A stretch of DNA of 64,000 nt, from the NCBI GenBank assembly GCA_022376515.1, contig WTXI01000047.1, positions 1 through 64,000 of the forward strand, in the 5' to 3' direction. Position 1 is the stretch's first letter, and each line of letters opens with the position of its first letter. The stretch comes from Lactifluus volemus. Taxonomy: Eukaryota; Basidiomycota; Agaricomycetes; Russulales; Russulaceae. The translations under genes were made by a program, and so were the position numbers. Below the pieces are notes generated by a model. It was not told the DNA's origin, did no database searches, and saw only the letters and a program-made list of their open reading frames with translations. Shown one piece after another: positions 2,757 through 61,621 of this stretch.

Positions 2757-4083
2757 CCATTTCTTCTTGGTCTCTTACCACCACCATCATTGATTTTCCC
2801 ATGATGTTTTACCCTTCTGTTCTCTCCCAAGAATCCTATTTCCAAGCTTTTCAGGACATCATAAACAATGTCCCTAAAGCCAGAGAGGCTATTAAGGCTG
2901 CCCAGGTAGTCCTAAATGCCATTTCCTACAGCATCTCAGCCGATCACTGCCTAGGCAATGGCTCAGGCATCTTTGAAGTGGCCCTTATTGCTGCCCATCA
3001 GTCACCCCAGAAACCTTTTCCCTCCTGCTCTCTCCACAGCCACTCTCCAATGCATTGATGCACTACTAGACAAGCCTAGCAACAATTCTCAGGAATTTTT
3101 ACCTGAAAGGGTTTTTACTGAGATTCCCATTTCTCAGCCCACTCAAACACCCCCCATGGGTACTTTGGGCAGTGAGGCTGAGCCCCTGCTAGCATCCTGC
3201 TACTTCCCCCCAGGGAAGAAGCTTTTCTCTCGCAGGCCACTTACTGCAGATAATGAACTGGGCATTTTCAATATCTACAACATCTTCTGTCATTGCTGGT
3301 TCCTCTCCTGGGACCACCTCATGGTCAATGTCATCTCAGCCCAAAAGGCTAAGGATGGAAAAACTTTTTGGGTTAAGTTTGCTTCCCAGTTTCATGCCCA
3401 CCTGGTCAAGTGTGCTGTTGTGCTTGTACCTTGCCCCATCCATAAGATGAAACAGATGATGTTTGGTTTCATATTAGAGCTTAACAGGGAAGGCTCCCAA
3501 ACCTTCTTTGATCTCACCAAGGGCCTGTGGCTTGCCAGCAAGGCCCAGAAGAGGAAGAAGCAACTCTCATAGCAAAGGAATCATGCATTGAGGTGAGAAC
3601 ACTAAAAGCTAGCCAAAGAAGCTGTCTCAGGCAAACCACAACAGCAATGCCTGAAGTGCAGACATAAGTTCACCTCCTGCAAAGCTAAGAAGAGACACTG
3701 ATGCCCTTTACCATTGGAGGTGAGCAGAAAGAGCAGGGACATGAAGGACAAGGGAAATCCAAAGCCTTTACCCCTTCAAACAAGCCCAAGGCCCCCAAAC
3801 CTCCCACCACACCCCCCAAAACCCCTGTAAACCCCCCACTTACTACTGCTCTCCAGGCTGCTAAGAGCAGAGTGCCCAAAACAGAGCACCCCCTGCCTGG
3901 TGACTACATAGACTGCACATCCAACCACTGTTTGGCGATGCTCAACACCATGTCAAAGAAGTGAGTTCAGAAAGAGGTGATAGACAAAGTTACTTAGACT
4001 AGAGTAGTAGTTCTGTCTAGTTTTTGACTGCACCCCTAGACTGTTACACCCCCTCAGCACAATAGAAATCTGATTTTTTAAAA
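2757..4083 (+). mobile_element. ORF-bearing retroposon R, copy R1
   Basis: The element is bounded by a perfect 13-bp direct repeat AAGCCCAAGTAAT (2744-2756 and 4084-4096), with a T6A6 tract at the 3' end. Its 5' leader, ending in CTCTTACCACCACCATCATT before the start codon, matches the starts of R2, R3 and R4. Full-length size, a 3' A-run and a long TSD are the marks of LINE-type target-primed insertion. No reverse transcriptase is present, so it must be mobilised in trans (inference). Confidence 0.85.
2801..3964 (+). pseudogene. R-family zinc-finger protein, decayed (R1)
   Basis: The ATG at 2801 opens a frame that shifts near 3040 into the frame ending at 3572, with a last piece at 3701-3964. 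The conserved core (about 3250-3560) reads NELGIFNIYNIF, then WFLSWDHLMVNVISAQKAKD, FHAHLVKCAVVLVP, and MMFGFILELNREG. It is followed by a basic stretch and a CxxC zinc finger (CLKCRHKF) whose next conserved codon is TGA. A Pro/Lys-rich tail follows. Function is unknown; a nucleic-acid-binding role is only suggested by the finger and basic region. Frameshifts and stops make this copy inactive. Confidence 0.7.
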
Positions 4084-4096
4084 AAGCCCAAGTAAT

Positions 4097-5359
4097 TAAA
4101 ACACATCATCACAAAGGGCTAATCATCTAACAGGCATTCACCAGCTTTCTGTCTTTACAGGCATTAGCAAATGCTCTGCTTTTATAAAATAAGCTAAACT
4201 TACCCAGCCTAGAGCAACTTAAGAGCCAATGGATGACAGTGTGGTTATCCACATGACAGTCTACATCAGGAAAACCCAAGGTTGCTTAAAGGTGCTTAGT
4301 GGTCTTAATAGTCTTAAATTTACTTTTTTACTTAATTTTGCTTGATGAAAATTTTATTTAAGCACAATTAAGCAACTTAAGCAGGCTCAACATGCTCAGC
4401 ATAACAATCTGCATGCTTCAGGGCTGATATGGGAGTCTGGCCCCTATTAGTAGTGAGTGCTACAGTTTTAGTGGTCAGTGGGATCCTCCCTCTGATAAGA
4501 TGGGCTATCATCTCTTTCAGTGCTTTCTCTCCAAGCTTCTAACTCCCCTTGTCAGATTAGCCCTCTTACTTTTTCTCTCTCCTTTGCTTTAGCTTTTGAA
4601 TAACATCACCCCTTCTAGTCTTGCTCTCACACTTCATCCCTTTTTACTTACTCACCCTGTGCCCTTTCCTTTCTCTTTTTTTTATGTTTCTTTTCTGTTT
4701 TCTCTTCATGGCCTTTTCTTGCTACCCTGTATAGTAGCCCTTTTTCTCTGTGTACTATCTGTATAGTAGTCTATTCTCTTCATGTACCATCCATGTTATC
4801 CAGCCTTTAACTGTGCCTGCTTGCTCCAATGTCACATGTTCTGGGACCTGAGGGTTCAGCCTCCCTATCCTGTCACTCCACTTTGATGCCACATGTAAGC
4901 CATCATAGTGAGGTATGATGATTAGTGGCTTTAGATCAGGATCTGTCCAACAGTCCATAGTAAAGAAAATCTTTCTAATAGATTGTAGCTAATAATCAAA
5001 TACTTAAATATAAATTAATTCCCTTTACTGTATTGGCTACACACCTGCATATGGGCTGTGAGATATTCAAAGTGCTCAGCCTGTAGCTCCAAAATGCAAT
5101 TGCTAATTATTATACAATAGGGAATATTGACTCTAACTTAGGCTCCAAGTCAGCAATCTCTAGAGACCTTTGAATTGCCCCTTGCTGCCAGTGACTCAGA
5201 AAGAACACCTGAGTTATTATATCCTCAGGCTCAAAGACCTCAAAATGCCCTCATAGACCCTTATCCCCCTACACCTAGCTAGAGCAGCCTAAGGTGTCAG
5301 CAATGAGCAGAGCAGTAAGAGGCCATTTCTCCTGAGCCAGAGTCTGGGCTAGCAGGCAA
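4097..5359. other. degenerate sequence with an old H-like MITE
   Basis: A diverged family-H left end (CATCAGGAAAACCC) begins at 4264, followed by inverted GCTTAA/TTAAGC motifs to about 4400. A 67-codon minus-strand frame at 4755-4958 has no recognisable homology and is probably fortuitous. The rest is CpG-poor with no supported gene. Confidence 0.4.
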
Positions 5360-5977: not shown

Positions 5978-5996
5978 ACATTGAATAATTGTAGCT

Positions 5997-7307: not shown

Positions 7308-7334
7308 CTTACCAGCTTGAACTTAAGCCTACAA

Positions 7335-7917: not shown

Positions 7918-7922
7918 GCTTC

Positions 7923-14261: not shown

Positions 14262-14273
14262 AGTCATGCACTT

Positions 14274-15592
14274 TTTTTTTTATAAAATCAAATTTGTATA
14301 GTGCAGGGGTGTATGTAACGAGGTACTTCCTACAAGAGAGTTGGTACCAGAAGGTCCAAAGTGTCACCCAGACACACTGCATCTAGACCCTGACAGAACT
14401 ACAGCTCAAGGTTTATCAATCACTGATTCCATCACCCTCTGCCTCATGCCCCTCTTTGCTGCAGTGTTTAGCCAGTTTGAGTGACAGGCTGGGGGAGTCT
14501 CCACATTCGGCTGCTCAAAGAAGGTTGCTGGCCCTGCAGCCACTACTGCGGTCTTGGGTGTGCACTGCTTGGCTGCCTCGAGGGGGGTAGTGGGTGGTGG
14601 GTTGACTTTGAAGGTGGGGGGTGCGGTAGGGGCTTTAGGTGGAGCCTTCAGCTTGTTTGAGGTGGCGGGGGGTTTGGATTTACCCTTACCCTTGGTCTCT
14701 CCTCCCTTTCCACTTGCCCCCTTGGAAATAGGGCATCAGTGTTGCTTCTGAGCCTTATGGGAAGCGAACTTACATCTGCACTCCTTGCAGGCATGTTGTG
14801 ACTTGCCAGTGGCGGCTTCTTCGGCAGCCCAGCATTGTTGCCTTGATGTGCGATTCCTTTTCCATGCAAGGCGTTTCTTCTCCTTCTGGGCCTTCAATGC
14901 GAGGCTCGGGCCCTTTGTGAGGTTGAAAAAGGCTTTGGGGGCCTCTCTGTTGAGTGTGTCTAAGACGTATGTGAACATCACCTTTTTCACCTTCTGAAGG
15001 GGGTGAGGTACAAGCGCAACAGCACACTTGACCAGGTGAGCGTGGTATGGGGGAGTAAACTCAACCCAAGAAATTTTCCCATCCTCGGCCTTTTGGGCTG
15101 AGATGATGTTGGCCATGAGGTGGTCCTGAGAGAGGAACCATCAACGATGGAAGGTGTTGTGAATGTTGAACACAGAGAGCTCATTATTCACAGTAAGTGC
15201 CCTGTGTGGGGTTAGTTTCTCCTTTGGGGGGTAGTAAACAGGTTCCTGCAGGGGTCTACCCCCCTTGCCAGCCATATCTGCTGGGGGGGTATCAACTTGG
15301 GGGTTGAAGAGGGTTGTGAAATGGGGGTCCCAGTAAAAACTGGTGGTGAAAAATCCTGGGAATTGGTGTCAGCCTTGTCCTGTGAGCCTGAGGGCTGGGG
15401 AGGTGCCACAGAGGGAGTAGAAAGGTTGGAGGATCTTGCGATCGCCATCTCTGCCTGCTTCCGGCTGGCTACCCATAGCGTGGAGCCCAGGTTGCCAAGC
15501 TTAAGGGAAGGGGAGAAAGGGGAGGGAGACAAAGGGGGGGAGGACATCGTCAAAAAATCGATGGTGGTGGTAAGAAGTCAAGAAGGCTTGTA
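14274..15592 (-). mobile_element. ORF-bearing retroposon R, copy R2
   Basis: A perfect 12-bp direct repeat AGTCATGCACTT lies at 14262-14273 and 15593-15604. On the minus strand the element starts with the shared leader (CTTCTTGACTTCTTACCACC) and ends in an A10 tail next to the duplication. It is 1319 bp, the same size class as R1 and R3. These are hallmarks of target-primed reverse transcription. Confidence 0.9.
14396..15553 (-). pseudogene. R-family zinc-finger protein, decayed (R2)
   Basis: The N-terminal half (15553-15212) has the SQDFSPPVFTGTPISQP motif shared with R3 and R4. The core (15116-14736) reads MANIISAQKAEDGK, YHAHLVKCAVALVP, KVMFTYVLDTLNRE, then a basic stretch and the finger CKECRCKFASHKAQKQH, followed by TGA where R4 has Arg. 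Past the stop, the same frame gives the Lys/Pro-rich tail (NPPPTTPLEAAK). Inactivated by stops and frameshifts; function unknown. Confidence 0.75.
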
Positions 15593-15604
15593 AGTCATGC
15601 ACTT

Positions 15605-28588: not shown

Positions 28589-28736
28589 TGTTACGGTTAT
28601 GCGGGCCGCCCGGCCCATTTCTTACTGTTTTCCGTCTGATTTTCGACTTGTGTTGTGACCTAGGATCCCTTTCCTTGGCCAGCCCCTTCTCTGTTCCGCT
28701 TCTAGGGGCTGTGCGTCGCCGTTTTGGACGTGTATT

Positions 28737-28835
28737 TGACTCAGGGATCATGACTCAAATCTTGAGTCAGCGTTCTTGACTCAGATCTTGAGTCAGACGC
28801 ACTGAGTCAGTTCTTGAGTCATCAGAACTGACTCA
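28737..28835 (+). promoter_or_regulatory. eight TGASTCA (bZIP/Gcn4-AP-1) boxes
   Basis: Perfect TGACTCA/TGAGTCA heptamers start at 28737, 28751, 28763, 28777, 28789, 28803, 28815 and 28829, about 12-14 bp apart. They lie ~75-175 bp upstream of the TATA-like box. TGASTCA is the binding site of Gcn4/AP-1-type bZIP activators. The same array is in the 3' LTR and in copy B (53620-53718). Confidence 0.8.
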
Positions 28836-28910
28836 GGTCCTTAGTCAATAGTCTTGACTTCGCTACTGTACTGTGACCTTTGTAGGATAGTTGGCTGGCC
28901 CTCTGTACGC

Positions 28911-28944
28911 ATAAATAGGGCCCTGTAGACGAGCTAAAGCCCCA
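28911..28944 (+). promoter_or_regulatory. Gypsy-1A core promoter and inferred start site
   Basis: ATAAATA at 28911 is followed 33 bp later by AGCTTCAGCTT (28944-28954). The complementarity of this 11-mer to the PBS places the RNA 5' end at or very near 28944 if priming follows the Tf1 mode. Confidence 0.6.
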
Positions 28945-29527
28945 GCTTCAGCTTTGTCTAGAATCGCAGTTCATTGTCTCCTGCTCACACTCGCATCGCA
29001 TCTTCCTCCTCTCTTCTTGTGAATCCCCTCTTCGTACCTTGATCCAGGTACTCCGCGCCACGATCAGACATCTGTGAACTTGTTCCATTTCTGTGCAACA
29101 AGTCCCCAGACGCCTGAACCCTAATACGAACGCGCTGTGAGAAGTAGTCCCCACTTCTCACCCCGCGTCCGCCCTCGAACCTTAGTTCAACCTCTCACGA
29201 GTGTCCTTGGAAGGCGAGCATCTCTTGCATTCCAATTACACTCGCGCCCGTGTTGCGGTTGAACCTACACATTGTCATTAACCCATCTGCCACCGTCTAT
29301 CCTCTTTGGGAACGGTAACTCCGACCATCGCGTGCGCCGGCCCGCTAGTCCGTCTCGCGCGATACAGACACCCAGGGTTCGCACAGTCAAGTCTACTCCA
29401 CACAGGACCTTGCCTGCGCGTGCTAGAATCGACTATTTGGTGTTGCTAGTCTTGTCCGACTCGCCACAGCAAATAGCCAACCAGAACGACGCTCACTTCG
29501 AGCCACGGTCCCTGCGAACCGAGACAT

Positions 29528-29538
29528 AAGCTGAAGCT
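29528..29538 (+). other. Gypsy-1A self-complementary primer-binding site
   Basis: One base after the LTR the sequence AAGCTGAAGCT is exactly complementary to AGCTTCAGCTT at the inferred RNA 5' end (28944-28954). In Schizosaccharomyces pombe Tf1, the first 11 nt of the RNA fold back onto the PBS and prime reverse transcription without a tRNA. The length and location match that mechanism. Confidence 0.75.
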
Positions 29539-29678
29539 CCTACCCCTCCACTTCTTCGTCATAAGAAGTGTACCCCGAACGAACCAGACCGTTGCCCACT
29601 TTCTTTTCAGGCCGAGAAAGTGTGTGCCAGAGTGCACAGAAATTTTTCGTTCCTCTTGCTAGAGTGAACAACTTATAG

Positions 29679-31643: not shown

Positions 31644-32185
31644 AGAGCTCGTGCCGCGCGACCTGGGTACGAGCCTTAGGACTGAAACGAATGTACATTA
31701 GCTATGCCAATGCCAATGCTTTGAATTTGCCCATTTCGTTTTCAAATGTCCACAAAACGGTCGCAGATGTCGCCTTAGTCGACAGTGGAGCCACGGAAAA
31801 CTTCCTTGATCACCGCACAGTCCGCCGATGGGGACTCAGCACTCATAAACTCCCTCACCCCCGCTACGTCTACAATGTGGATGGAACCCAGAACCAAGCT
31901 GGGACACTCACGGAGTACTGTGTTCTTCACTGTGTCGTAGGAGACAAGGACACCCTCCAGCGGTTCTACATCACCAATCTTGGCAAGGATCGCGTACTCC
32001 TGGGGCACCCTTGGCTTTCAGAGTTCAATCCTCGCATCGATTGGACCAAGGGGCAAGTGCAGAATGGGGAGTACGGATCGAAACCAAGTGGAGGAAGTTC
32101 CAGCGCCCTCGTCAGATACACAAAGACAGGGAGAAGGAACCAGCACGCATTGATCGCACCAATGTGGCCCAGGAATGGGCCATAA
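31644..32185 (+). CDS. Gypsy-1A aspartic protease, -1 frame to gag
   Basis: The frame overlaps the gag stop (GGATTTTTGA) and reads VALVDSGATENFLDHRTVRR, the retropepsin active-site motif, then RFYITNLGKDRVLLGHPWL and FNPRIDWTKG. It matures the polyprotein. Genuine reading passes into the pol frame (again -1) near 32060, because the downstream homologous sequence (VRIETKWRKF) is in that frame. The residues after that in this frame are probably not used. Confidence 0.8.
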
Positions 32186-35100
32186 AAGCACACCAAGAGC
32201 AGGTAGCCAGTGGGGAAAAACGCGAGGTGTTACCACCCCAGTACCAGGACTATGCGGACGTCTTTGACGAGGAGAAGTCCCATCGCTTCCCACCTTCACG
32301 ACCAGAAGATCATGCCATTGTCTTGAAGGAGGACGCCCCAGCTACCATCAATTGTAAAGTCTATGCCCTCACAAGGGAAGAGAGGGAAGCGACCCAGAAA
32401 TTCTTAAAAGAGAATGAACAGTGGGGATTCATCGAAAAATCCAACTCTCCTTGGTCAACTCCTTGGTTCTTCATAAAGAAGAGAGATGGGAGCCTTCGAC
32501 CCATCCAGGACTACAGGGAGGTGAACAGTTGGACGATTCGAGATGTGTACCCCATCCCTCGCATCGAACAAATTCTGGAAGCACTGCATGGACGCACTCT
32601 CTTCACGGCATTAGACATTCGTTGGGGCTATCATAACATCCAGATTCGTCCTGAGGATCGATGGAAGGCCGCGTTTAAGACTCCCTTTGGCCTGTACCAA
32701 CCAAAGGTGATGCTCTTTGGCCTCCAGAACTCTCCGGCCACCTTTCAGCGTTGCATGGATCGGGTCTTTGCTAAGATCATGAACCGCTACCCCGGGAAGG
32801 TGTTCGTGTACATGGACGATGTCTTGGTGGCCACAGGGGGAGATGTGGAGGAACACAGGAGGATAGTCCGAGAAATCCTCGAGATGTTCCGCCAAGAATC
32901 CTTCTTCCTCAAACTGTCGAAGTGCAAGTTTGAGCAGACCAGCATTGACTACCTTGGCATCCGCGTGGAACATGGGACTATCCGCATCGATCCTACGAAG
33001 AGGAAAGGACTATCTCAATGGCCTCGAACCTTGTCTTCAGTGAAGGAGGTCCGGAGCACGCTTGGTGTTTTGGGGTACCAGAGACCATTCATTCCCCACT
33101 TTGCACATCTTGCGGCGCCACTCACTGCTTTACTGAAGAAGGGACGACCATTCAAGTGGACGGATGAGTGCACCAAGGCCTTGGATGCACTCCTCCAGAT
33201 CATAGAGTCCGATCCTGTCCTCCAAAGACCTGACTATGACCGCCCCTTCGAGATGGAGGTGGACGCGTCCCAGTATGCCACTGGGGCTATCCTCTACCAA
33301 CGAAATGACAAACAGAGGCTCTGTCCAGTGGGCTACCACTCCCAGACGTTGAACGAAGCTGAGAGAGGGTATGACGTCCATGACAGAGAGCTCTTGGCGG
33401 TAATTCGGGGTCTGCGACGATGGAGACACTTGTTCCTCTCCTCTCCCTTCACTGCCGTTGTGCACACCGATCATAATAATCTTCGATACTACCGGCAACC
33501 CCAGAGAATCAACCGACGCGTGGCAAGGTACCTTAGTGACCTTGCAGACTACAATTACAAGCTGGTGCACCGCCCAGGCAAGCTGAACAAGGCTGACGCG
33601 CTGTCCAGACCACCAGGAGTGGACGAAGGGAAACACGATAACGAAAACACCCTTGTCCTACCTGACAAACTCTTTGCGCGGGCAGTGGAGGTCACTGGAC
33701 TTGAGCAGCAGGTTTGGGATTGGCAAGCACGCACACCGAACTACTTCACGGAGCTGCACCGCTCCTACCCGCTCGATTCAGTGAATCACCACTGGGTGCA
33801 CCAGGGGAGACCTGTGGTTGCAGACCGGGAAGATCTGAAGCGACAGATCCTACATGAATACCATGACCACGCCTTGGCTGGGCATCCAGGCATTGCCACG
33901 ACGCTTCAGAAGGTGTCTGAAGACTACTGGTGGCCGACGATGCGACAGTTCGTTCAGAACTATGTCAAGGGTTGTGCAACTTGCCAAATGACGAAACCCA
34001 ATACTGTGAAACCCAAACCACCGTTGATGCCGATCACTGCTGAACCGAAGGCAATCCCTTTCCAGACCATTTCCCTTGACCTCATCACCGATCTCCCGGT
34101 CTCAAAGGGATACGACTCGATCCTCACAGTAGTGGACCACGATTGCTCGAAGGCAGCCTTCTTCTTGCCCTGTCAGAAGACAATTGACGCAGAAGAAGTG
34201 GCCCAGCTCTATGTGGAACACATCTTCCCTCTCTTTGGCTGCCCCCACCACGTCATCTCGGACAGAGATCCCCGTTTTACTGCACACTTCACCCGCCAGA
34301 TGTGTGAACTGCTAGGAATCACACAGAACATCAGCTCGGCTTATCATCCGCAGACTGATGGACAATCAGAACGCGCTAATCAGTGGGTGGAACAGTATTT
34401 GCGGATCTATGGAAGCAGCCAACAAGACGACTGGGCAAACCTTCTTCCTCTTGCCCAATTTGTTCACAACTCCTGGCCAAATGCGAGCACAGGGAAGGCT
34501 CCCTGTGAGCTCTTGTGGGGCGCAAACCCAATCATCCACCCCTCCGGAAAAAGCACAAATATCCCAGCGTTACATCAAAGACAAATGTGGCTTAAGGAGG
34601 CTAGGGAGCGCGCCCAGGATGCTATCAGAAAAGCGCAGGAACTGTGGTTAAAAAGGCGCCAGAGAAAGAAGGGTCAAAGGCACTTCTACCCATTCGAAAA
34701 AGGACAACAAGTGTTGTTGGAGGGAACAAACCTAAAGACAATCTATCCGTCCGCAAAGTTGGGACCCAAAAGATATGGTCCATTTCCCATCATCGACGTC
34801 ATTTCCCCAGTAGTGTACCGCCTCCAGCTCCCCCCACACTGGCGCATTCACAATGTCTTCCACGCGTCCTTGTTAACACCTTACAAGGAGACGGAAGAGC
34901 ATGGGCGCAACTTCGCAGAGCCGCCACCTGATCTGATGGAAGGCGAACCAGAATATGAGGTGGAGCAGATCATTGATGCGCGCAAGAAAGGGAAGGCAGA
35001 AAAGCTTGAGTATCTCCTTCGTTGGAAGGGATATTCACCCGCTCATGATAGTTGGGAACCCGCCGACAATGTGAAGGCTCCGGAGCTCATTAAGGAGTTC

Positions 35101-36084
35101 TATCAGCGCAACCCCAATGAGATAGGGGGAGGAAGGATAAAAGCGAAGAGGAAGAGACGAATCCGCACCATCGTCACCCCCACTACCTCCTCCTCCATGA
35201 GTAATGCCTTACAACTTGCGTTCCAGTACCCCAACTCGGAGGATGACTACCTCCAACTCCTCGACTCGTCGTTCAACTCCCTCGCGGTCTGCGAGGGGGG
35301 AGAGTGGCCCCCCTCAGAGGCGTCCCTTACCAAGGACACCCCAGCAGAACCAGCCCAGATCAGCGCCTCCACCGTACAGGAGGACCACCCACTCGCCTCG
35401 CCGCAGTCCCTCGTACCATCCGAGGACCCCATCTCCTCTCCCAGGTCCGACGCCGCCTCCCCAACTCTCGCCTATCCAGGAAGCCCTGGAGACGCTGGCA
35501 GCGGACATGAGGTTCCAGCCAGAAGTCATGTCGCTGGAGACCCCCACGCGCTGCGATCCGAATCCCCTCACGATCCCTGGAAGGTCTTCAGCTGGGCCCA
35601 ACCTTCTGCAGGTGACGGTGCTCATCAACTCCAGGGGATACGTGCAGCAGATGGGGACGGCCTACGTTCACTCATCGTCGCGTCTTCGTCGCATGGGGGG
35701 CCGTCTGGTGGTGATTCCGGAGTCAGCCCTCTGAGAATCACTGGCAAGCGCAAGAGGAGGGGGAAGAAGTCATATTATTGCGGCAAGTGCAACAAGGACG
35801 GGGTGGACCACAAGTACGAGAACTGTCCTTTGTGGAGGGAGTGCCTCTATTGCCAGAAGAGAGGGCACTACTCCCACGACTGTCACCACCCCCATACGCG
35901 TTGCACTGTCTATAGGTGCCGGGTCTTCCCTGACCACCAGTACTATGGGAGGAACTGTCCTGTCAAGGCCACGGAGTTGCGGCCCGTTACTCATCTTTGG
36001 GATGAATATGACGCAGATGACGTCGATGCAGGTGAGGCGCTTTGGGATGACATTGACTGGGAGTCCATGGACAGGGGTGACTGA
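32060..36084 (+). CDS. Gypsy-1A pol: RT, RNase H, integrase, chromodomain, C-terminal zinc knuckles
   Basis: The single open frame extends 32011-36084. RT: PWFFIKKRDGSLRPIQDYRE, LFGLQNSPATFQR, catalytic YMDD (VFVYMDDVLVA). RNase H: EVDASQYATGAILYQ, DRELLAVIRGLRRW. Integrase: H2C2 (HDHALAGHPG..CATCQ), DLITDLPVSKGYDSI, SDRDPRFTAHFT, TDGQSERANQW. Chromodomain: EYEVEQIIDARKKGK to WKGYSPAHDSWEPADN (about 34950-35090). After it comes a ~300-residue Ser/Pro-rich tail ending in Cys/His motifs (YYCGKCNKDGVDHKYENC, CLYCQKRGHYSHDC). All catalytic residues are present, so activity is plausible. Confidence 0.95.
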
Positions 36085-36106
36085 GGCGCATGGTGGTACA
36101 TGCGCC
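36085..36106 (+). other. perfect stem-loop between pol stop and PPT
   Basis: GGCGCATG (36085-36092) pairs fully with CATGCGCC (36099-36106) around a 6-nt loop. It abuts the stop codon (36082-36084) and lies 1 nt before the polypurine tract. In copy B one arm has C-to-T, which keeps a G-U pair. Confidence 0.7.
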
Positions 36107-36107
36107 T

Positions 36108-36118
36108 AGGAGAGAGGG
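36108..36118 (+). other. Gypsy-1A polypurine tract
   Basis: AGGAGAGAGGG lies 3 bp upstream of the 3' LTR, the expected plus-strand primer position. Confidence 0.85.
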
Positions 36119-36121
36119 TAC

Positions 36122-37059
36122 TGTTACGGTTATGCGGGCCGCCCGGCCCATTTCTTACTGTTTTCCGTCTGATTTTCGACTTGTGTTGTGACCTAGGATC
36201 CCTTTCCTTGGCCAGCCCCTTCTCTGTTCCACTTCTAGGGGCTGTGCGTCGCCGTTTTGGACGTGTATTTGACTCAGGGATCATGACTCAAATCTTGAGT
36301 CAGCGTTCTTGACTCAGATCTTGAGTCAGACGCACTGAGTCAGTTCTTGAGTCATCAGAACTGACTCAGGTCCTTAGTCAATAGTCTTGACTTCGCTACT
36401 GTACTGTGACCTTTGTAGGATAGTTGGCTGGCCCTCTGTACGCATAAATAGGGCCCTGTAGACGAGCTAAAGCCCCAGCTTCAGCTTTGTCTAGAATCGC
36501 AGTTCATTGTCTCCTGCTCACACTCGCATCGCATCTTCCTCCTCTCTTCTTGTGAATCCCCTCTTCGTACCTTGATCCAGGTACTCCGCGCCACGATCAG
36601 ACATCTGTGAACTTGTTCCATTTCTGTGCAACAAGTCCCCAGACGCCTGAACCCTAATACGAACGCGCTGTGAGAAGTAGTCCCCACTTCTCACCCCGCG
36701 TCCGCCCTCGAACCTTAGTTCAACCTCTCACGAGTGTCCTTGGAAGGCGAGCATCTCTTGCATTCCAATTACACTCGCGCCCGTGTTGCGGTTGAACCTA
36801 CACATTGTCATTAACCCATCTGCCACCGTCTATCCTCTTTGGGAACGGTAACTCCGACCATCGCGTGCGCCGGCCCGCTAGTCCGTCTCGCGCGATACAG
36901 ACACCCAGGGTTCGCACAGTCAAGTCTACTCCACACAGGACCTTGCCTGCGCGTGCTAGAATCGACTATTTGGTGTTGCTAGTCTTGTCCGACTCGCCAC
37001 AGCAAATAGCCAACCAGAACGACGCTCACTTCGAGCCACGGTCCCTGCGAACCGAGACA
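36122..37059 (+). repeat. Gypsy-1A 3' LTR
   Basis: 938 bp, essentially identical to the 5' LTR (one G-to-A change noticed at 36231). It is flanked by TSD ATAGT. Confidence 0.96.
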
Positions 37060-39379: not shown

Positions 39380-39892
39380 AGATCAAAGGTTCAGTGAAGA
39401 TGAGACTTAGTAAACGACTAAGTCAAGAGCATTTCAGAGGTCAAGGGCTTGGGCTCAGAAATGAGACCAAGGTTCAAGAAGTTGAAGAGTATGATGTCAA
39501 GAGGCTTCTCTCAGGTCTGATGCTTCTAGGCAAGCAAGGTTCTAATAGATAGAAGACTTGGATTGCGAAACAAAATGAAGACTTAAGGTCTCTAGGGCAG
39601 AAAGTACACGGCTTATATAAAAGAGAATGAGGCTATGTACACAGCCATAGGAGCTGTGACCTTTGTATAGCTTTCAGGGCTTGAAACATGTTTCAGGACA
39701 TGTGGCTGTTACTTGCAGCTGTACAGTGCTGTGTGAGGCTGTACCATGAGAAAATAAGTAACTGATCTGAAATAAAGCAATTGGCAGTTCATTCATATAA
39801 GCAAGGAGTCAGTAGAAATGGGTCAAGAGTCTGAAAACGTACCATATAAGTCAGTAGTCACGTGTCAGGCCATAACAGGTCTTCTGGGATGG

Positions 39893-41201
39893 GCTTTTTT
39901 TTTTTTAATAACTTTTTTTAAGCGATTTCAGGGTACATACATCCTATAGACCACGTTTAAGTCCTGACAGTACCACTACTCAAGTCCTGTCACGTTACTG
40001 AGTCCATTAGCCCTCTCCTGGTCCTTCACTTCTTCTTAGTGTTAAGCTGAGTTGAATGTTGGTCGGAGGTACCCTTGGAACGCTGGTCGGACACAAACTC
40101 TCTAACCAAAGTGCGGAGTGGGGCAGGACCTGTTGATGCCACCTCGACAGTGCTAGATGGAGTGTTTGGCCATTTGTAGGTGCTTTGCTTCTTCTTTTTC
40201 TTTAGAGCTTTAGTCTTGAGTGTCGTTGCAGTTTGCAGGGCAGTGGTGGCCAATGGAGTGACCATGTTAGAGGGGGCAGTGGGAGGATTAGGGGGGCCTG
40301 GCTTGTCCAGCCTAGTGCGGGTGGAGGTTCTACCCTTGCCTTTTGTGTCCCCACTCTTTCTGCTCTCCTCCATGGAAATAGGGCATTGGTGTTACTTTGC
40401 AGCTTTGCAGGATGCGAACTTCCATCTGCAGGTTGGGCATTGCCATTGTGGTCTGCCATTAACAGCTTCTTCGGCTGCTTTTCAGCGATCTTGCCTTGAT
40501 GTGCAGTTCCTTTTCCGTGACAGTCGCCTCTTCTCCTTTTGTGCCTGTGTAGCTCTCTGCTGGCCTTTTGAGAGATTGAAAAAGGCTTGAGGGCCTTCCC
40601 CATTAAGAAGCTCTAAGATATATCCGAACATCACCTTTTTCACCTTATCGATAGGGCAAGGCACAAGTGCGACAGCGCACTTGACCAGGTGAGCGTGAAA
40701 CTGGGGAGCAAACTCAACCCAAGAAAATTTTCAGTCTACTGCCTTTTGGGCTGAGAGGGCATTGGCCCTGAGGTTGTCCACAGAGAGAAACTAATGGTGA
40801 CAAAAGGTGTTGAGGATGTCAAAAATGGAGAGTTCGTCATCCCCAGAAAGTGCCTTCTTCTTTACAAGCCTTTTTCCCAGGAGGGAAGTAGCGAGGTTCG
40901 AGGGAGGGCTCTGCCCTGCCAGCCAACGTATCCAAGGTGGGCGTTTGAATAGGCTGAGAAATGGGAGTCTTGGTGAAAACCCATAAAGGTGAAAAATCAT
41001 GAGAATTGAAAGGGCCAATCTCGTCCTGCGGTCTTGACAGGGGCTTGAGTGGGGGCCGTGTTCCTGTGAGAGACTGGGGAGGTGCCATAGAGGGAGAGGG
41101 AGGGGGAAACTGAAACCTGGGGGTTGCAGTGGGTGTAACGGGGGGGGAAGTCATCGTGGGAAAAATCAACGGTGATGGTGGTAAGAGACAAAGAAGGAAT
41201 G
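39893..41201 (-). mobile_element. ORF-bearing retroposon R, copy R3
   Basis: The flanking repeat TCTGGGATGG (39883-39892 and 41202-41211; extendable to 12 with one mismatch) and an A12 tail on the minus strand (39895-39906) bound the element. The minus-strand start (CTTTGTCTCTTACCACCATC) is the shared R leader. Removing it restores Gypsy-2 reading NQMAIP-EDPAV. Confidence 0.88.
40026..41154 (-). pseudogene. R-family zinc-finger protein, decayed (R3)
   Basis: Starts MTSPPVTPTATPRFQFPP at 41154. KTPISQPIQTPT and DDELSIFDILNTF, FHAHLVKCAVALVP and VMFGYILELLNGEGPQAFF mark the shared core. The zinc finger CPTCRWKFASCKAAK is followed by TAA, then HQCPISMEESRK and a Lys/Pro tail (40373-40026) in the same frame. 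Further stops lie at 40482 and in the core. The predicted role is nucleic-acid binding at most; unknown otherwise. Confidence 0.72.
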
Positions 41202-41724
41202 TCTGGGATGGCCATCTGATTATGATGATACCACTTAGTCCCAAAGCATGTCTGGCACTTCTGTACTCCTTTCATTCTTGTCTATTCCTCCAACTGTTGT
41301 TGATGTCTTTCTTGGGCATGCTCCACTTCTTGTTCCAGCGACTGTTCCTTCATGAAGAGGTACACAAAAAGTTTCAGGGGTAGAACCAGTATGTCCTTAT
41401 GGTCATTTTCCCCTTGGTCACACCTGGGTTGTCACAATAGTGGGTCAGCCTTATTAGTTTTTCCTGGCCAGTGCACAATCTTCATATTATATTTCACCAT
41501 TTTTGGGATGTATCTTACCACTCTTCTACTAATTTTGTGGGCCTCTTGATAATATTAGAGGTTAGCATGGTAGCTAACAACTGTGATGGTGTGTGGGAAG
41601 CTCAGCAAGAGATGTCACTAGTGTTCTAAGCCTCAGATCATTGCTAGCAACTCCCAATCATAAATGTCATAGTTTCTCTCTACCTGATTGAATGTCCATG
41701 AGTAGTATCCTACTGGACACAGTC
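41202..41724 (-). pseudogene. Gypsy-2 RNase H and linker
   Basis: The minus strand reads RLCPVGYYSWTFNQVERNYD, IYDWELLAM, KIVHWPGKTNKAD, with several stops. It continues to NQMAIP at the R3 site. The homologous order in Gypsy-1A confirms identity. Confidence 0.75.
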
Positions 41725-52990: not shown

Positions 52991-53864
52991 TGTCACGGTT
53001 CACAGGGACCATGGCTCGGAGTGAGCTTCAATTAATCAATGAAGGATGCGCAGGTGAGTTCCTGTGAAGGATAGACTTGACTGTGCAAACTCTCGGTTCT
53101 GTATCGCGTGAGGCGGGTAGTACGGGCCGGCACACGCGATGGTCAGAGTTACCATTCCCAAAGAGGATAGATGGTGGCAGATGAACGAAGGACGATCTGT
53201 AAGTTCAACCGCAATGCAGGCGCGAGTGTGATTGGAATGCAAGGGATGCTCGCCTTCCAAGGACACTCGTGGGAGGTTGAACTAAGGTTTGTGCGAAATG
53301 AAGGGGGAGGAATTAGACAATCCTTCACCCTTGATTTTGTACAAGGTTCAGGGTGTCTGTGAGCTTGTTTACAAGGGCGTAAACAGGCTAACAGATGTTC
53401 TGATTGTGGCGTGAAGGTACCTTAACCAAAGGTACAAAGAGGGGATGCACAAGAAAAGAGAGGGAGATTGAGTGTCAAGCAACAACTGTGATTCTTGACG
53501 AAGCTGAAGCTGGGGCTTTAGCTTGTCCATAGGGCCCTATTTATGTGTACAGAGGGCCAGCCAACTATCCTACAAAGGTCACAGTAAAGTAGCAAAGTCA
53601 AGACCATTGACTAAGGACCTGAGTCAGTTCTGATGACTCAAGAACTGACTCAGTGCGTCTGACTCAAGATCTGAGTCAAGAATGCTGACTCAAGATTTGA
53701 GTCATGATCCCTGAGTCAAATACACATCCAAAATAGCGATGCACAGCCCCTAGAAGACAAACAGAGGGGGCTGGCCAAGGAAAGGGATCCTAGGTCATAA
53801 CACAAGTCGAAAAATGGACGGAAAGCAGTAAGAAATGGGCCAGACGGCCCGCATAACCGTAACA
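52991..53864 (-). repeat. Gypsy-1B 3' LTR (LTR B)
   Basis: 874 bp, homologous to the Gypsy-1A LTR in reverse, ending CCGTAACA. All eight TGASTCA boxes survive at 53620-53718 with the same total span (99 bp) as in 1A, as do the TATA-like box and AGCTTCAGCTT. Confidence 0.92.
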
Positions 53865-53901
53865 GCACCCTCTCTCCTAGGCGCATGTACCACCATGCAC
53901 C

Positions 53902-56900
53902 TCAGTCACCCCTGTCCACAGATTTCCAGTCAATGTCTTCCCAAAGCGCCTCACCTGCATCTATGTTGTCTGTGTTGTACTCATCCCAGTGATGAGTAAT
54001 GGGCTGCAACTCCGTGGCCTCGACGGGACATTTTCTCCCATAGTATTGATGGTCAGGGAAGACCCGGCACCTGTAGATGGTGCAACGCGCATGGGGGTGG
54101 TGACAGTCGTGGGAGTAGTGTCCCTTCTTCTTGCAATAGAGACACTCCCTCCACAAGGGGCAATCCTCGTACTTGTGGTCCACCCCGTCTCTGTTGCACT
54201 TGCCACAGTAGAAGGAACGCTTGCCCTTTCTTTTGCGCTTATCCATGATCCTCAGAGGGCTGACTCTGGAATCACCACCAGATGGCCCCCCATGTGACGA
54301 AGATGCGACAACGGGTGAACGTAGGCTGTCCCCATCTGCTGCACGTATCCCCTGGAATTGATAAGCACTGTCACTTGCAGAAGGTTGGGCCCAGCTGAAG
54401 ACCTCCCAGGGATCATGAGGGGATTCGGATTGCAGCGCGTGGGGGTCTCCAGTGACATGACCTCCGGCTGGAATCTCATGTCTGCCGCCAGGGACTCCAG
54501 GGCTTCCTGGATAAGCGAGAGTTGGGAAGGCAGCGTTGGACCTGGGAGAGGAGATGGAGTCCTTGGGTGATATGAGGGGCTTCGGCGAGGCTCTTGGCGA
54601 GGCAAGCAGGTGGTCCTCCTGTACAGTGGAGGTGCTGATCTGGGTTGGTTCTGCTGGGGTGTCCGTGGCAAGGAACGTCTCTGAGAAGGACCACTCCCCT
54701 CCCTCACAGACTGCGAGGGTGTTGAACGACGAGTCGAGAAGTTGGAGGTAGTCCTCCTCTGAGTTGGGGTATTGGAACGCAAGTTGTAAGGCATTACTCA
54801 TGGAGGAGAAGATAGTAGGAGTGGTGATGGTGCAGATTCATCTTTTCCTCCTCGCTTTTATCCTCCCTCCCCCTATCGCATTGGGGTTGCGTTGATAGAA
54901 CTCCTTAATGAGCTCTGGAGCCTTCACATTGCCAGCGGGTTCCCAACTATCATGAGCAGGTGAATATCCCTTCCAACGAAGGAGATACTCAAGCTTTTCT
55001 GCCTTCCCTTTCTTGTGCACATCAATGATCTGCTCCACCTCATATTCTGGTTCGCCTTCCATCAGATCAGGTGGTGGTTCTGCAAAGTTGCACCCATGCT
55101 CTTCCGTCTCCTTGTAAGGTGTTAACAAGGACGCATGGAAGACATTGTGAATGCGCCAGTGTGGGGGGAGCTGGAGGCGGTACACCACTGGGGAAATGAC
55201 GTCAATGATAGGGAATGGACCATATCTTTTTGGTCCCAATTTTGCGGACGGGTACATTGTCTTTAGGTTTGTTCCCTCCAACAATACTTGTTGTCCCCTT
55301 TCGAATGGATGGAAGTGTCTTTGACCCTTCTTTCTCTGGCGTCGTTTCAGCCACAGTTCCTGCACCTTTCTGATACCATCTTGAGCGTGTTCCCTAGCCT
55401 CCTTCAGCCACATTTGCCTCTGATGCAATGCAGGGACATTTGTGACCTTTCCAGAGAGGTGAATGATTGGGTTTGCGCCCCACAAGAGCTCGAAGGGTGT
55501 CTTCTTTGTGCTTGCATTTGGCCAGGAATTGTGGACAAATTGGGCAAGAGAAAGAAGGTTTTCCCAGTCGTCTTGTTGGCTGCTTCCATAGATTCGCAAG
55601 TATTGCTCCACCCACTGATTAGCGCGTTCTGATTGTCCATCAGTCTGCAGATGATAGGCGGAGCTGATGTTTTGTGTAACTCCTAGCAGTTCACACATTT
55701 GGCGGGTGAAGTGCGCAGTGAAACAGGGATCTCTGTCCGAAATGATGTGATGGGGACAGCCAAAAAGAGGGAAGATGTGTTCCACATAGAGTTGAGCCAC
55801 TTCCTCTGCGTCAATTGTCTTTTGACAGGGCAAGAAGAAGGCTGCCTTCGAGCAATCATGGTCCACTACCGTTAGGATTGAGTCATATCCCTTTGAAACT
55901 GGGAGATCGGTGATGAGGTCAAGTGAAATTGGCTGGAAGGGGATTGCTTTTCGTTCAACAGTGATTGGCATTAGCGGGGGCTTGGGTTTTACAGTATTGG
56001 GTTTCGTCATTTGGCAAGTTACACACCCTTTGACGTAGTTCTGAACATATTGCTGCATTGTTGGCCACCAGTAGTCCTCTGACACCTTCTGAAGTGTTGT
56101 AGCGATGCCAGGATGTCCAGCCAAAGCATGATCATGATACTCATGTAAGATCTGTCGCTTAAGATCTCCCTGGTCCACGACTACTGGTCTTCCCTGGTGC
56201 ACCCAATGGTGATTCACTGAATTAAGTGGGTATGAGCGATGCAGCTCTGCAAAGTAGTCCAGTGTGCGTGCTTGCCAATCCCAGACTTGCTGCTCGAGAT
56301 TACTGACTTCTGTTGCCCACGCAAAGAGTTTGTCTGGGAGGACAAGGGTGTTTTCATTATCATGCTTCCCTTCGTCCACCCCTGGTGGTCTAGACAACGC
56401 GTCAGCCTTGTTCAGTTTGCCTGGGCAGTGCACTAGCTTGTAATTGTAGTCGGCAAGGTCACTGAGGTACCTTGCTATGCATCAATTGATTCTTTGAGGT
56501 TGCCGATAATATCGAAGGTTATTGTGATTGGTATGGACAATGGTGGTAAAGGGGGAGGAGAGGAACAGATGTCTCCATCGCCGCAGACCTCGAATCACCG
56601 CCAAAAGTTCTCTATTATGGACATCGTACCCTCTCTCAGCCTCATTCAACGTTTGAGAGTGGTAGCCCACTGGGCAAAGTCTTTGCTTGTCATTTCGCTG
56701 ATAGAGGATGGCCCCAGTGGCATACTGAGACACATCTACCTCCATCTCAAAAGGGCGGTCATAGTCAGGTCGTTGGAGGACAGGGTCGGACTCTACAATC
56801 TGGAGGAGTGCATCCAAAGCCTTGGTGCACTCATCCGTCCATTTAAATGGTCGTCCCTTCTTCAGTAGGGTCGTGAGCGGGGCTGCGAGGTGTGCGAAGT

Positions 56901-57462
56901 GGGGAATGAATGGTCTTTGATATCCCAAGACCCTAAGTGTGCTCTGTACTTCCTTTACTGAAGATAAGGTTCGAGGCCATTGAGACAGTCCCTTCCTCTT
57001 TATGGGGTTGATGCGGATGGTTCCCTGCTCCACACAAATGCCAAGGTAGTCAATGCTGGTTCGCTCGAACTTGCACTTCGACAATTTGAGGAAGAAGGAT
57101 TCTTGGCAGAACATCTTGAGAATTTCTCGAACTATCCTCCGATGCTCTTCCATGTCTCCCCCAGTGGCAATCAGGATGTCATCCATATATACAAACACCT
57201 TCCCTGGGTAGCGGTTCATGATCCTAGCAAAGACCTGGTCCATGCAACGCTGGAAGGTGGCTGGAGAGTTCTGGAGACCGAAGAGCATCACCTTCGGCTG
57301 ATACAGACCAAAGGGAGTCTTAAACGCAGCTTTCCATCGATCCTCAGGATGAATTTGAATGTTGTGATAGCCCCAATGAATGTCTAATGCTGTGAAGAGG
57401 GTGCGCCCATGCAAGGCTTCCAAAATTTGCTCAATGCGAGGGATGGGGTACACATCTCGCAC
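53902..57462 (-). pseudogene. Gypsy-1B pol (RT to C-terminal zinc knuckles)
   Basis: A single frame homologous to Gypsy-1A pol, with YMDD (VFVYMDDILIA), RNase H, integrase DDE, chromodomain (EYEVEQIIDVHKKGK) and the C-terminal CGKCNRDGVDHKYEDC motifs. Only two stops interrupt it, at the INRR site (about 56480) and at 54838-54840; both are CGA in 1A and TGA here. The 5' part is cut by the hAT insertion at 57463. Confidence 0.93.
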
Positions 57463-58338: not shown

Positions 58339-58399
58339 CTGCATCCAGTAAGTAACTTATGCAAAACTACACAAAGAAAAAGGACCTACAAAGCGCATT

Positions 58400-59460
58400 C
58401 CATCTGCATGAAAACTGCCAACAAGTTCATCCCACACAGGACCGGCATTAGCAAGTAATAACACACAAGCTGTGGCAAGGATAGGGCCACAGGGAGGTGG
58501 CGGTGGTGGTGGCGGTGCAGGAGGTTGAAAATGTGCAGGAGGTGGAAAATGCGCGGGAGACGCAGGAGGCATAGGATGGGAGGCATGGCAAGTGCGAGAG
58601 ATGCAGGACGCACGGGAGATGCAGGAGGAGGTGGTGCAGGCAGGGAGGTGGTGGCGCAGGAAGAGGCAACGGAGGCGGAGGTGAAAAAAAATAAGGATAG
58701 GAGTTAGGACACGTTGGGGCGGGGAAAGCAGCGTGACAACGTACCAGGGAGGGGGTGCAGAAGGCGTCAGTATAGGCAGCATGATGCTGTGGACTGCCCT
58801 GTCCAGGAGGCGCGCGATGCGGAGGAGCTAAAAGCAGAAGGCAGCACAGGAGGCACAGGAGGACACGGCGGAGGTAGAGGCACAGGAGGAGAGGAGGCGG
58901 AGGAGGCAGCAGTGGGATGTGTTGGGGCGACAATGCACACAGGAGGCAACACAGTCGTGGTGGCAAGAAGGTGGTGGGGACGTGGAGACATGTGGCAGTG
59001 CCAGACAGGGAGCGGTGATGACAGCAGAGGCCACGACAGAGATGGCGACAGAGAGGGACAGAGGGGCCCGCTACTGAATTTGTCTGTTCCTGGCACCGTC
59101 TCTGCATCTGTGTTGCATCGTAGAGAGGTAGTAGATTGAAGTGCCAGCAAAGAAAGGTTCGAAATTTGAAGGGGCCAAGGGCCAACGAGACATGTGCCGT
59201 GCATGATAGGGTGAATGGGGCGTCAGGGCCCCAGCTGGCTGGTGATCTAGAATATTGCAGAAATGCCAAAGAGAGTGGTGAGAGTGGGCAAGCGATGCAA
59301 GCTGAAGGGGGAAGTTGCAAAGTGAGTGAAAGAATGGATGGAGAAGAACAAAAAAAAAAATCATGCGGTGCCACTGCCACTACCATTGCTTGGGCAGCGC
59401 CACTACCACTGCTGCCGCTCAGGCCCACTTGCACCTATTCAGTCAAGACAAATTGTTCTT
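58400..59460. repeat. GC-rich low-complexity/minisatellite region in the hAT
   Basis: Repeats of GCAGGAGG, GGAGGTGG and GGCACAGGAGG-type units dominate. The long minus-strand frame (328 codons, Pro/Leu/Cys/His) is a by-product of the repeat. No gene is supported. Confidence 0.6.
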
Positions 59461-59464
59461 CTGA

Positions 59465-60118
59465 TAGTAAACCAACATGTATACGGAAGATGGTAACGAA
59501 TGTGAAGAGGCAGATCCAGATAACATAATGAATGCAAGGGGATCAACAGGGTATACGGAGAACGTAACGAGTGTGAAGGTGCTCGGGAAAGACAAAGTCT
59601 ATATGTCTAGTCCTTGTAAAATGTTTGAAACACGCTCTAGTTCAATCCTACCATCAATTTCATCAAGGTTCCCAACCTCTTCAAGGTCCTCATTCCGAAT
59701 GAGACCCAGTAAACTCCATGAACCAAGGCACAGAAGTGCGCGTGTGGACGTTACACTGAGTCGGCCCCATGTATGCGAAAGGACAAGTCAGCCACGGCTG
59801 AACAAGTGTTCAACATCAACTGAGGTACCTGTAGGATGTGATAAGCTGTTGAAAGTCAAAAGAGGTACCACACACCAGGAATAGTAAGGTAATCAATTGC
59901 CATCCGCGAGAGATGTGGATAGGATTGGTAGGACTCTCGCTTCTCCAGCCACCAGCGAATGGGATCTGCAATATTTTTATCAGGCTTTGTACTGAGGTAT
60001 TGTTCGAGTTCTTGATCTAATGTAGATGCCGATTCATCGGATGACATTGCGGCAGGGTCTTGGTCGAAGACATTGACCTTGTCCTGTTATACCTGAAAGT
60101 AAGAATAATTGACAAATA
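59465..60118 (-). repeat. hAT 3' segment duplicated at 1-654
   Basis: Nearly identical to window bases 1-654 with scattered transitions. It contains the hATC coding part and 3' UTR. The right limit is where the two copies diverge (AATA then G versus A). Confidence 0.9.
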
Positions 60119-60185
60119 AAGGGTTTCACTCACCTTGACATTCTGGGAAATGCGGCTAGCTGAATTGTTTGTGTTGGCTTCCTCT

Positions 60186-61621
60186 GTGAATGAACTTTTC
60201 TCTGTTGAGACGGGTTCCGGGGATCGCCCGATATACCGTGTTGTAACTATACAGTGTCTGCTATGTAGAGCTACTCATGCAGTTTGTCCAATAACCCTCT
60301 CCTTGTCCTGCGTTTCATCTCGGTGTTAAGTCGCGACGAGCGGCGGTCGGAGGTCATCTCGTGTGGCTGGTCGGAGGCTAGCACTCTGCCTAACGTGCGA
60401 TTGGGGACATGCGTTGCCGCACTTTCCCGGGGGCCAGGAGTAGTCGTTGTCGGTGTCGGTTCTTGAGGCTTCGATGTCGAGCTTGACTTCTTCTTCTTTT
60501 TCGATGGATGTTGGTCTTGCGTCTTCTTAGCCTGAGATTGAGCGGTGGTCATGGTGCTGACAGGGGGGTTGGGGGGGGCGTCTCGAGTCTTGGGGGCCGG
60601 CTTGTTCGGTTTCGGGGCAGCTCTGGACTTGCCTTTGCCGCTCGCCTCCCCACTCTCGTCGCCATCCTCCTTGGAGAAAGGGCATCGGTGTCACTTGGCG
60701 GCCCTGCGTGTCGCAAACTCCCGCTTGCAGAACTTGCATGACCGTTGTGGTTTGCCATTAGCTGCCTCGACGGCGGCTTTCCGGCGCTCCTGCCTCGATG
60801 CGCGATTCCTTTTCCATGCAAGTTGCCTCTTCTCCTTCAGAGCCAGAGATGCCACTCTCTGTCCCTTAGCGAGATCGAAAAAGGCTTGAGGGCCTTCTCC
60901 GTTAAGAAGCTCTAAGATGTATCCAAACATCACCTTTTTCACCTTGTTGAGGGGGCGAGGTACAAGTGCAACAGCGCACTTGACCAGATGAGCGTGGAAC
61001 TGGGGAGCGAACTCAACCCAAAAAAATTTTCCATCTTCGGCCTTTTGGGCCAAAATGACGTTAGCCACGAGGTGGTCCCGTGATAAGAACCAGCAGTGAC
61101 GGAATATATTGTGGATGTCGAACACTGAGAGTTCGTCAGCCACAGAAAGAGCCCGACGGGTTGGGGGTTTGCCCTTTGCCCTAGGGGTCGTGCCCGCCTG
61201 CCCTTCGCCCGGAGAATCACCGATGGGCTCAGGGTGTGGAGTGTTGGGCTGTGAAACGGGGGTCCCAGTGCAAAACGGTGTAAAAGGCGACTGGGAATTT
61301 GATGTGCCAGCCTCGCCAAGCGAGCTCGGGGGCTCGGTGGGGGCTACAGAGGGAGTAGGAGGGGGGTCAACGGCTTGGGGAACGAAGGCGGCTCTAAGGG
61401 CTGCCTCCACCATGTCCGAACCATCGCCTAAGCGATGTCCTTGCTGGATGTCTTCTGGGAGTGAGCAGATAACTTCCACAGCCACGTTTATTGCTTGGTC
61501 TGTGCCTGGAACGCCTAGAATGCGGTCGTCCTTGGCTTTGTCGAAGGACTGAAAGTCGAGAATGGGGGGATAAGGCATTGAGAAAATTTTCAATGATGGT
61601 GGTAAGAAGTCAAGAAGGCTT
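60186..61621 (-). mobile_element. ORF-bearing retroposon R, copy R4 (youngest)
   Basis: A perfect 15-bp duplication GTGTTGGCTTCCTCT (60171-60185, 61622-61636) flanks the element. The shared leader (CTTCTTGACTTCTTACCACC) marks its 5' end. It is CpG-rich, 1436 bp, and lies inside the hAT transposase gene between EEANT codons. The 3' end lacks a clear A tail (AGAAAAGTTCATTCAC). Confidence 0.92.
60271..61578 (-). CDS. R-family zinc-finger protein, best-preserved copy (R4)
   Basis: The ATG at 61578 gives 295 codons to a TGA at 60691-60693. The same frame then runs open to 60271 (435 codons in all if the stop is discounted). Order: N-terminal region MPYPPILDFQSFDKAKDDRI; acidic/Ser-Pro linker; core DELSVFDIHNIF..WFLSRDHLVANVILAQKAED, FHAHLVKCAVALVP, VMFGYILELLNGEGPQAFFD; basic patch AWKRNRASRQERRK; zinc finger C-x2-C-x12-H-x-C (CKFCKREF...HRC); Lys/Pro/Ser tail ending RRTRRGLLDKLHE. 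The stop falls inside the finger at a position that is CGA-derived in all copies. No known family is recognised. The long frame upstream of 61578 into hAT codons is an insertion artefact. Confidence 0.75.

What the first reader, a model, noticed from the sequence alone, without database searches (positions are those of the whole stretch)
2757..61621. R: a full-length, non-autonomous retroposon carrying its own zinc-finger ORF, four copies in 64 kb
Copies at 2757-4083, 14274-15592, 39893-41201 and 60186-61621 share the same 5' leader, size (1.31-1.44 kb) and ORF. Each is bounded by a different target duplication of 10-15 bp, and R2 and R3 have clear 3' A tails. SINEs do not usually encode protein, and LINEs encode RT; R encodes neither RT nor endonuclease. 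R is either a parasite of a LINE or a repeatedly retroposed host gene.
Basis: partly seen in the sequence, partly recalled or inferred. Interest (0 to 1): 0.87.

Follow-up and report, generated by a model that had tools for sequence, protein, structure and literature searches.

The report
Protein-coding retroposon lacking reverse transcriptase
A mushroom genome carries about a hundred copies of a short jumping element that makes its own protein but no reverse transcriptase, apparently copied by the genome's LINE elements while natural selection keeps its protein intact.

Summary
R1-R4 lie at the stated coordinates, share a 5' leader and a homologous ORF, show no RT or endonuclease, and are bounded by exact 10-17 bp duplications. 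R1-R3 are decayed; R4 has one TGA in its finger. The genome is that of Lactifluus volemus. It holds at least 103 R loci; 35 have a stop-free match in a frame of 360 codons or more. Exact duplications bound 28 of 33 distinct sites read. Four of five subfamilies have intact copies. In 6 of 10 pairs there are clearly fewer amino-acid changes than a CpG-aware null expects. Two subfamilies end like resident LINEs (0-3 of 1000 shuffles); three do not. Those LINEs carry their own, unrelated ORF1. Named homologues are Lactifluus, Lactarius and Russula. No intron-bearing parent was seen. Best reading: an ORF-bearing, RT-less parasite of LINEs, a new variant of the HAL1/SINE kind whose protein is not visibly LINE-derived. 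The protein's role is inferred. Open point: three Lactarius gene models join R to LINE sequence.

The parts
2757..4083 (+). R1: decayed copy with leader, interrupted ORF, A-rich tail; tail 45-mer scores as LINE-A type
2744..2756 (.). R1 target-site duplication, 5' copy (13 bp)
4084..4096 (.). R1 target-site duplication, 3' copy
14274..15592 (-). R2: interrupted ORF, poly(A) tail, LINE-like 3' end
14262..14273 (.). R2 target-site duplication at the 3' end of the element (12 bp)
15593..15604 (.). R2 target-site duplication at the 5' end of the element
39893..41201 (-). R3: interrupted ORF, A-rich tail, 3' end not significantly LINE-like
39883..39892 (.). R3 target-site duplication at the 3' end of the element (10 bp)
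41202..41211 (.). R3 target-site duplication at the 5' end of the element
60186..61621 (-). R4: member of the subfamily with the most similar copies, no poly(A) tail
60274..61578 (-). R4 ORF, 435 codons aligned to P0001 at 92% identity, one TGA at 60691-60693
60682..60738 (-). R4 zinc-finger-like stretch (C-x2-C-x12-H-x-C in intact relatives); carries the TGA
61579..61621 (-). R4 5' leader, shared across subfamilies
60169..60185 (.). R4 target-site duplication at the 3' end of the element (17 bp)
61620..61636 (.). R4 target-site duplication at the 5' end of the element; overlaps the leader by 2 bp

Best explanation
R is a family of RT-less, protein-coding non-LTR retroposons. Steps shown here: elements of about 1.3-1.5 kb start at one conserved leader, which 31 of 33 fetched copies reach; they carry one ORF whose amino-acid sequence is conserved by selection; they are flanked by 10-18 bp target duplications; some subfamilies end in the 3' terminus of LINEs of the same genome followed by poly(A). 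Steps inferred: RNA polymerase II transcribes a copy from a promoter in or near the leader; the mRNA is translated; the R protein (long basic helix followed by a C-x2-C-x12-H-x-C finger) binds the RNA that encoded it and helps it compete for a LINE's endonuclease and reverse transcriptase, which insert it by target-primed reverse transcription.
For: At least 103 loci on 66 contigs, 35 with a stop-free match in a frame of at least 360 codons. 31 of 33 fetched copies have the leader. Exact duplications at 28 of 33 distinct sites. CpG-aware null: amino-acid changes 52 against 87+-5.2 expected (L007/L015) and 27 against 52+-3.9 (L030/L087), 0 of 2000 simulations each; clear in 6 of 10 pairs. Tail 45-mers of six copies of the R2-like and R1-like subfamilies match LINE 3' ends (0-3 of 1000 shuffles; L029 CAGCGCTATATAAACTTGATTC against L082 CAGCGCTATATAAATGCTGATTC). 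LINEs with long open frames exist, and their ORF1 has CCHC knuckles and no similarity to R. No tRNA or Rfam match in the window and no A or B box in R1-R4. C-x2-C-x(11-13)-H-x-C occurs in 85 of 94 homologues, the LINE/gag-type knuckle in 0 of 94.
Against: Tails of the R3-like, 500-aa and R4-like subfamilies do not match the LINE ends read (333-980 of 1000 shuffles as good), and all but one (L016) of the R4-like ends read lack poly(A), so the helper of the youngest subfamily is unidentified. Four of ten pairs give no clear excess of silent changes (L002/L003, L004/L003, L015/L019; L008/L013 weak). Selection also fits a host function. Transcription, translation and RNA binding were not observed. 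Three Lactarius gene models join R to LINE sequence.
Confidence: 0.7

Rival explanations
1. R is a derivative of an autonomous LINE: an extra 5' ORF, or an ORF1 replacement, that became solo by internal deletion, as HAL1 did from L1. The parent may survive in Lactarius.
For: P0121 (L. pseudohatsudake, 939 aa) is R followed by a LINE ORF1 with CCHC knuckles; P0065 and P0067 are R followed by a LINE ORF2 C-terminal region (P0067 against L084, E 7.5e-24). The three share an R C-terminal stretch found in no other protein held.
Against: No R locus of 103 in L. volemus has an endonuclease match downstream on its strand within 12 kb. The LINEs read there have their own ORF1; L089 shows no R upstream of a LINE-B ORF1 over 1.4 kb. 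Other long R gene models join F-box, NACHT, gypsy or unnamed sequence, so gene models merge R with whatever lies beside it.
Confidence: 0.15
2. R is a host gene of Russulaceae whose mRNA is retroposed again and again; the intact copies are retrogenes.
For: Purifying selection and poly(A) with duplications fit processed retrocopies; homologues occur in three genera.
Against: Copies keep one fixed 5' leader and four subfamilies have intact copies. In most loci listed the match spans the core in one piece, so no intron-bearing copy stood out. LINE-type terminal sequences before the poly(A) are not expected of a host mRNA.
Confidence: 0.12
3. R is an LTR-element or DNA-transposon derivative.
For: Some copies lie in or beside LTR elements (by my reading, L017 and L023 have gypsy-type sequence upstream; the gene model P0019 includes an RNase H domain of LTR-type RT).
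Against: No terminal repeats seen in R, duplications of variable length (10-18 bp), poly(A) in most subfamilies.
Confidence: 0.02

Closest known systems
HAL1 (half-L1) of mammals
   Same: Non-autonomous non-LTR element that encodes a protein but no RT (PMC5753468, passages read).
   Different: [quoted passage not shown] the R protein shows no similarity to the ORF1 of the LINEs read in its genome and has a different finger.
SINE/LINE pairs with shared 3' ends
   Same: The 3' end of R2-like and R1-like copies resembles that of resident LINEs, followed by poly(A), as in SINE/LINE pairs (PMC3747384, passages read).
   Different: R encodes a conserved protein of about 380-460 aa and shows no pol III boxes.
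Eg-R1 of Blumeria
   Same: Fungal, RT-less, without A and B boxes; pol II transcription is supported for Eg-R1 (PMC6022598, passages read).
   Different: Eg-R1 gives a 74-aa peptide, discussed by its authors as neo-functionalisation of a non-coding retroelement; R has a long ORF with signs of purifying selection and homologues in three genera. Transcription of R was not tested.
EKA family of Blumeria
   Same: A large fungal family of retroelement-derived ORFs (PMC4641428, abstract and outline read).
   Different: EKA genes derive from truncated LINE ORF1; most R copies fetched are full-length units with their own leader and ends.
LINE-mediated chimeric retrogenes of Magnaporthe
   Same: Other transcripts are carried by a fungal LINE, with 14-bp duplications in the tripartite case (PMC2104539, abstract and outline read).
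   Different: Those are products of template switching; R is a coding family with intact, dispersed copies.

Membership tests
HAL1-like (ORF1-only LINE derivative) | Encodes no RT or endonuclease | tested here: met
   One long ORF; no Pfam RT or EN match for P0001-type protein or 94 homologues
HAL1-like (ORF1-only LINE derivative) | Its protein is the ORF1 of a LINE | tested here: inconclusive
   No similarity of P0001 (best E 2.0, six LINE loci) to LINEs A-D; Lactarius fusions unresolved
SINE | Pol III promoter from tRNA, 7SL or 5S RNA | tested here: not met
   No Rfam or tRNA match in the window; no A box in the first 150 bases and no B box (1 mismatch allowed) in R1-R4
SINE | 3' end shared with a resident LINE | tested here: inconclusive
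   Met in R2-like and R1-like copies, not in R3-like, R4-like or 500-aa copies
LINE-mobilised retroposon | Target-site duplications of variable length | tested here: met
   28 of 33 distinct sites, 10-18 bp
LINE-mobilised retroposon | Helper LINE present with open frame | tested here: met
   59 endonuclease matches, open frames up to 1485 codons
LINE-mobilised retroposon | Mobilised by that LINE in cells | not testable with these tools
   Needs a retrotransposition assay
Processed retrogene of a host gene | Intron-bearing parent | tested here: inconclusive
   None stood out among the 103 merged loci; only one species' DNA was searched

The most novel reading that the evidence does not exclude
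R is a semi-autonomous class between SINE and LINE: an element that supplies its own cis-acting RNA-binding protein, not derived from a LINE, to steer its RNA into a foreign LINE's replication machinery, and has apparently done so since before the Lactifluus, Lactarius and Russula lineages split.
Probability: 0.35. Interest if true: 0.8.

Novelty: new variant of a known kind. Interest (0 to 1): 0.58.

Why it matters
Why would a parasite that borrows reverse transcriptase keep a protein? Selection on R's ORF in several subfamilies suggests that the protein acts mainly for the copy that encodes it, otherwise broken copies would spread equally. R therefore offers a compact system for testing cis-preference and template choice by LINE enzymes. 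The genome-derived homologues listed with a name are called only 'hypothetical protein', so the family seems not to be annotated as mobile.

Tried and rejected

Limits of the counts. For one search I pasted 103 of 134 rows, 32 of 107 and 9 of 108, leaving out rows that I judged to be further pieces or repeats of loci already listed, and merged them to 103 loci; this is a lower bound. The 33 fetched copies are the 30 best protein matches plus three chosen ones, so they are biased to intact copies. Of 216 homologues and 345 only 120 each were listed; every listed row with an organism name is Lactifluus, Lactarius or Russula; the rest were not seen. It also gave five subfamilies with intact copies; one search showed that L027, the R1-like copy, shifts frame after the finger, hence four.
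Full report
Observation. R1-R4 were read directly. The leader TTCTTG(A/G)CTTCTTACCACCA(T/C)CA, or a close variant, begins each copy. Exact duplications of 13, 12, 10 and 17 bp bound R1-R4, and tblastn with four R proteins finds no fifth copy in the window. The four belong to different subfamilies (73-79% DNA identity in their longest pairwise alignments). R1-R3 are interrupted; R4 has one TGA, at 60691-60693, inside the finger.

Host. The protein search returned R proteins named as Lactifluus volemus; P0001 lies on a contig of 659157 bases, the length of contig C46 of the window's assembly (62.4 Mb, 628 contigs).

Copy number and state. Three protein searches of the assembly (134, 107 and 108 matches) merge, from the rows I entered, to 103 loci on 66 contigs. 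In 35 of them a stop-free match lies in an open frame of at least 360 codons. Subfamilies by protein tree: R4-like (P0001, P0002), R2-like (P0020), R3-like (P0016, P0013), R1-like (P0017) and a 500-aa group (L088), all in one clade of 13 L. volemus rows (support 100/100), apart from 23 Lactarius, Russula and L. subvellereus rows. Complete open ORFs were read in four of the five (L007, L087, L086, L088). The R1-like copy L027 is open for 427 codons but shifts frame after the finger. Named genera in the homologue lists are Lactifluus, Lactarius and Russula only (120 rows listed in each).

Ends. Of 33 fetched copies 31 have the leader; L019 and L022 do not. In L003 the leader lies about 1 kb before the rest, so that something is inserted between. 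Counting shared sites once (L005/L006/L025 and L017/L023) and adding R1-R3 (R4 is L001) gives 33 distinct sites. Exact duplications of 10-18 bp were found at 28; L017, L019, L021, L022 and L024 show none. The duplications of L009 and L088 were taken next to the element, since the script's longest match lay elsewhere. In L013 and L015 (read) a run of T lies between the duplication and the leader. Tails: A-rich or poly(A) in R1, R2, R3, L016, L027, L028, L029, L030, L086, L087 and L088; the R4-like ends read, except L016, have none and finish GTTCATTCAC, GTTCACACTC, GTTCACACAC or near variants.

Link to LINEs. PF14529 gives 59 matches, with open frames up to 1485 codons. By eye I sort the LINEs read into families A (L061, L064, L081, L082), B (L073, L078, L083-L085, L089), C (L074, L080, L091) and D (L071, L090). 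Their 3' ends before the A run are ...TATATAAATGCGGATTC (or GCTGATTC)...ATACAAATTCGGATTC...ACAATAAATTCCAATTC and ...GATATAAATGCTGATTT. Tail 45-mers of L087, L029, L030, R2, L027 and R1 score above dinucleotide shuffles (3, 0, 0, 1, 1 and 0 of 1000 as good); those of L086, R3, L088, L016, R4 and L008 do not (333, 915, 747, 980, 926 and 885 of 1000). L028 ends CTATATAAACTTGATTC before its A run but was not in that test. So a LINE-type end is shown for two subfamilies and not for the other three.

R is not the ORF1 of these LINEs. The LINE ORF1s contain CCHC knuckles. P0001 gives no meaningful tblastn match to six LINE loci (best E 2.0), and of 120 R proteins only P0065 and P0067 match the LINE loci held, through their non-R ends. 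No R locus has an endonuclease match downstream on its own strand within 12 kb; in the one same-strand pair (C33) R lies downstream of the LINE.

Selection. NG86 ratios: 0.08-0.15 among L007, L009, L010 and L012; 0.25-0.43 between subfamilies, with 0.55 for L027/L086, where the frame shift of L027 inflates the figure; higher in some close pairs (L002/L004 0.84, L003/L004 0.70). A null that keeps each pair's mutation classes, CpG transitions included, expects more amino-acid changes than observed in L007/L009, L010/L012, L030/L087 and L007/L015 (0 of 2000 simulations as low), L007/L002 (1 of 2000) and L011/L014 (19 of 2000); L008/L013 is weak (71 of 2000); L002/L003, L004/L003 and L015/L019 show none (328, 683 and 280 of 2000). 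The pairs are not all independent, only copies with long open frames were used, and L004 and L019 include some codons upstream of the R start. The pattern fits source lineages under constraint with some copies already drifting.

Protein. 435 aa in P0001. Many near-invariant residues between 150 and 260, then C281, C284, F288, H297 and C299; C-x2-C-x(11-13)-H-x-C in 85 of 94 homologues and C-x2-C-x4-H-x4-C in none. AlphaFold2: confident N-terminal helices and a core of two helices, a beta hairpin and two helices, then a long helix 236-274 rich in K and R. No known fold was recovered. RNA binding is my inference from the basic helix and finger.

Lactarius joins. Of nine long proteins with R, P0121 continues into a LINE ORF1 and P0067 into a LINE ORF2 C-terminus; P0065, found, is similar to P0067. 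The others join an F-box-like protein (P0130, P0154), a NACHT-like protein (P0153), an RT-type RNase H (P0019) or unnamed sequence (P0137, P0155, P0156) (the F-box and NACHT names are partly my reading of the sequences and recalled meanings of Pfam codes). Gene models merge neighbours, so the LINE joins may be neighbours, nested copies, template-switch chimeras like those of Magnaporthe (PMC2104539, abstract), or an autonomous parent.

Verdict. R works like a SINE or HAL1, most likely moved by LINEs in trans, but is neither by definition: it has no pol III head, and its protein is not visibly a LINE ORF1. New variant of a known kind.

Noticed in passing
window 28736-36380: A gypsy-type element with chromodomain; the same tandem-repeat block occurs at 28736-28847 and 36269-36380 with identical consensus units, probably in its two LTRs, which would suggest a young insertion.
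   Followed up: partly
window 53634-57462: A second, minus-strand relative of that gypsy element, its pol region split over several ORFs.
   Followed up: no
window 60694-62046: R4's frame is open upstream into an unrelated ORF that by eye resembles an hAT transposase; Pfam gave no match. R4 may lie inside an old DNA transposon.
   Followed up: partly
L088 (C379:16650-18450): An intact-ORF R copy lies inside what by eye are WD40-type repeats, with a 16-bp duplication.
   Followed up: no
L005, L006, L025: One R insertion with identical near flanks and duplication on three contigs (C120, C344, C334): duplicated segment or allelic contigs.
   Followed up: no
L013, L015: A run of T between the target duplication and the R leader: an odd 5' junction in two copies.
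   Followed up: no
P0121, P0065, P0067: Lactarius gene models joining R to a LINE ORF1 or to a LINE ORF2 C-terminus, sharing one R C-terminal stretch.
   Followed up: partly
P0036 (Lactifluus subvellereus): In the protein tree it falls with Lactarius and Russula rows, not with L. volemus; long branch, unsure.
   Followed up: no
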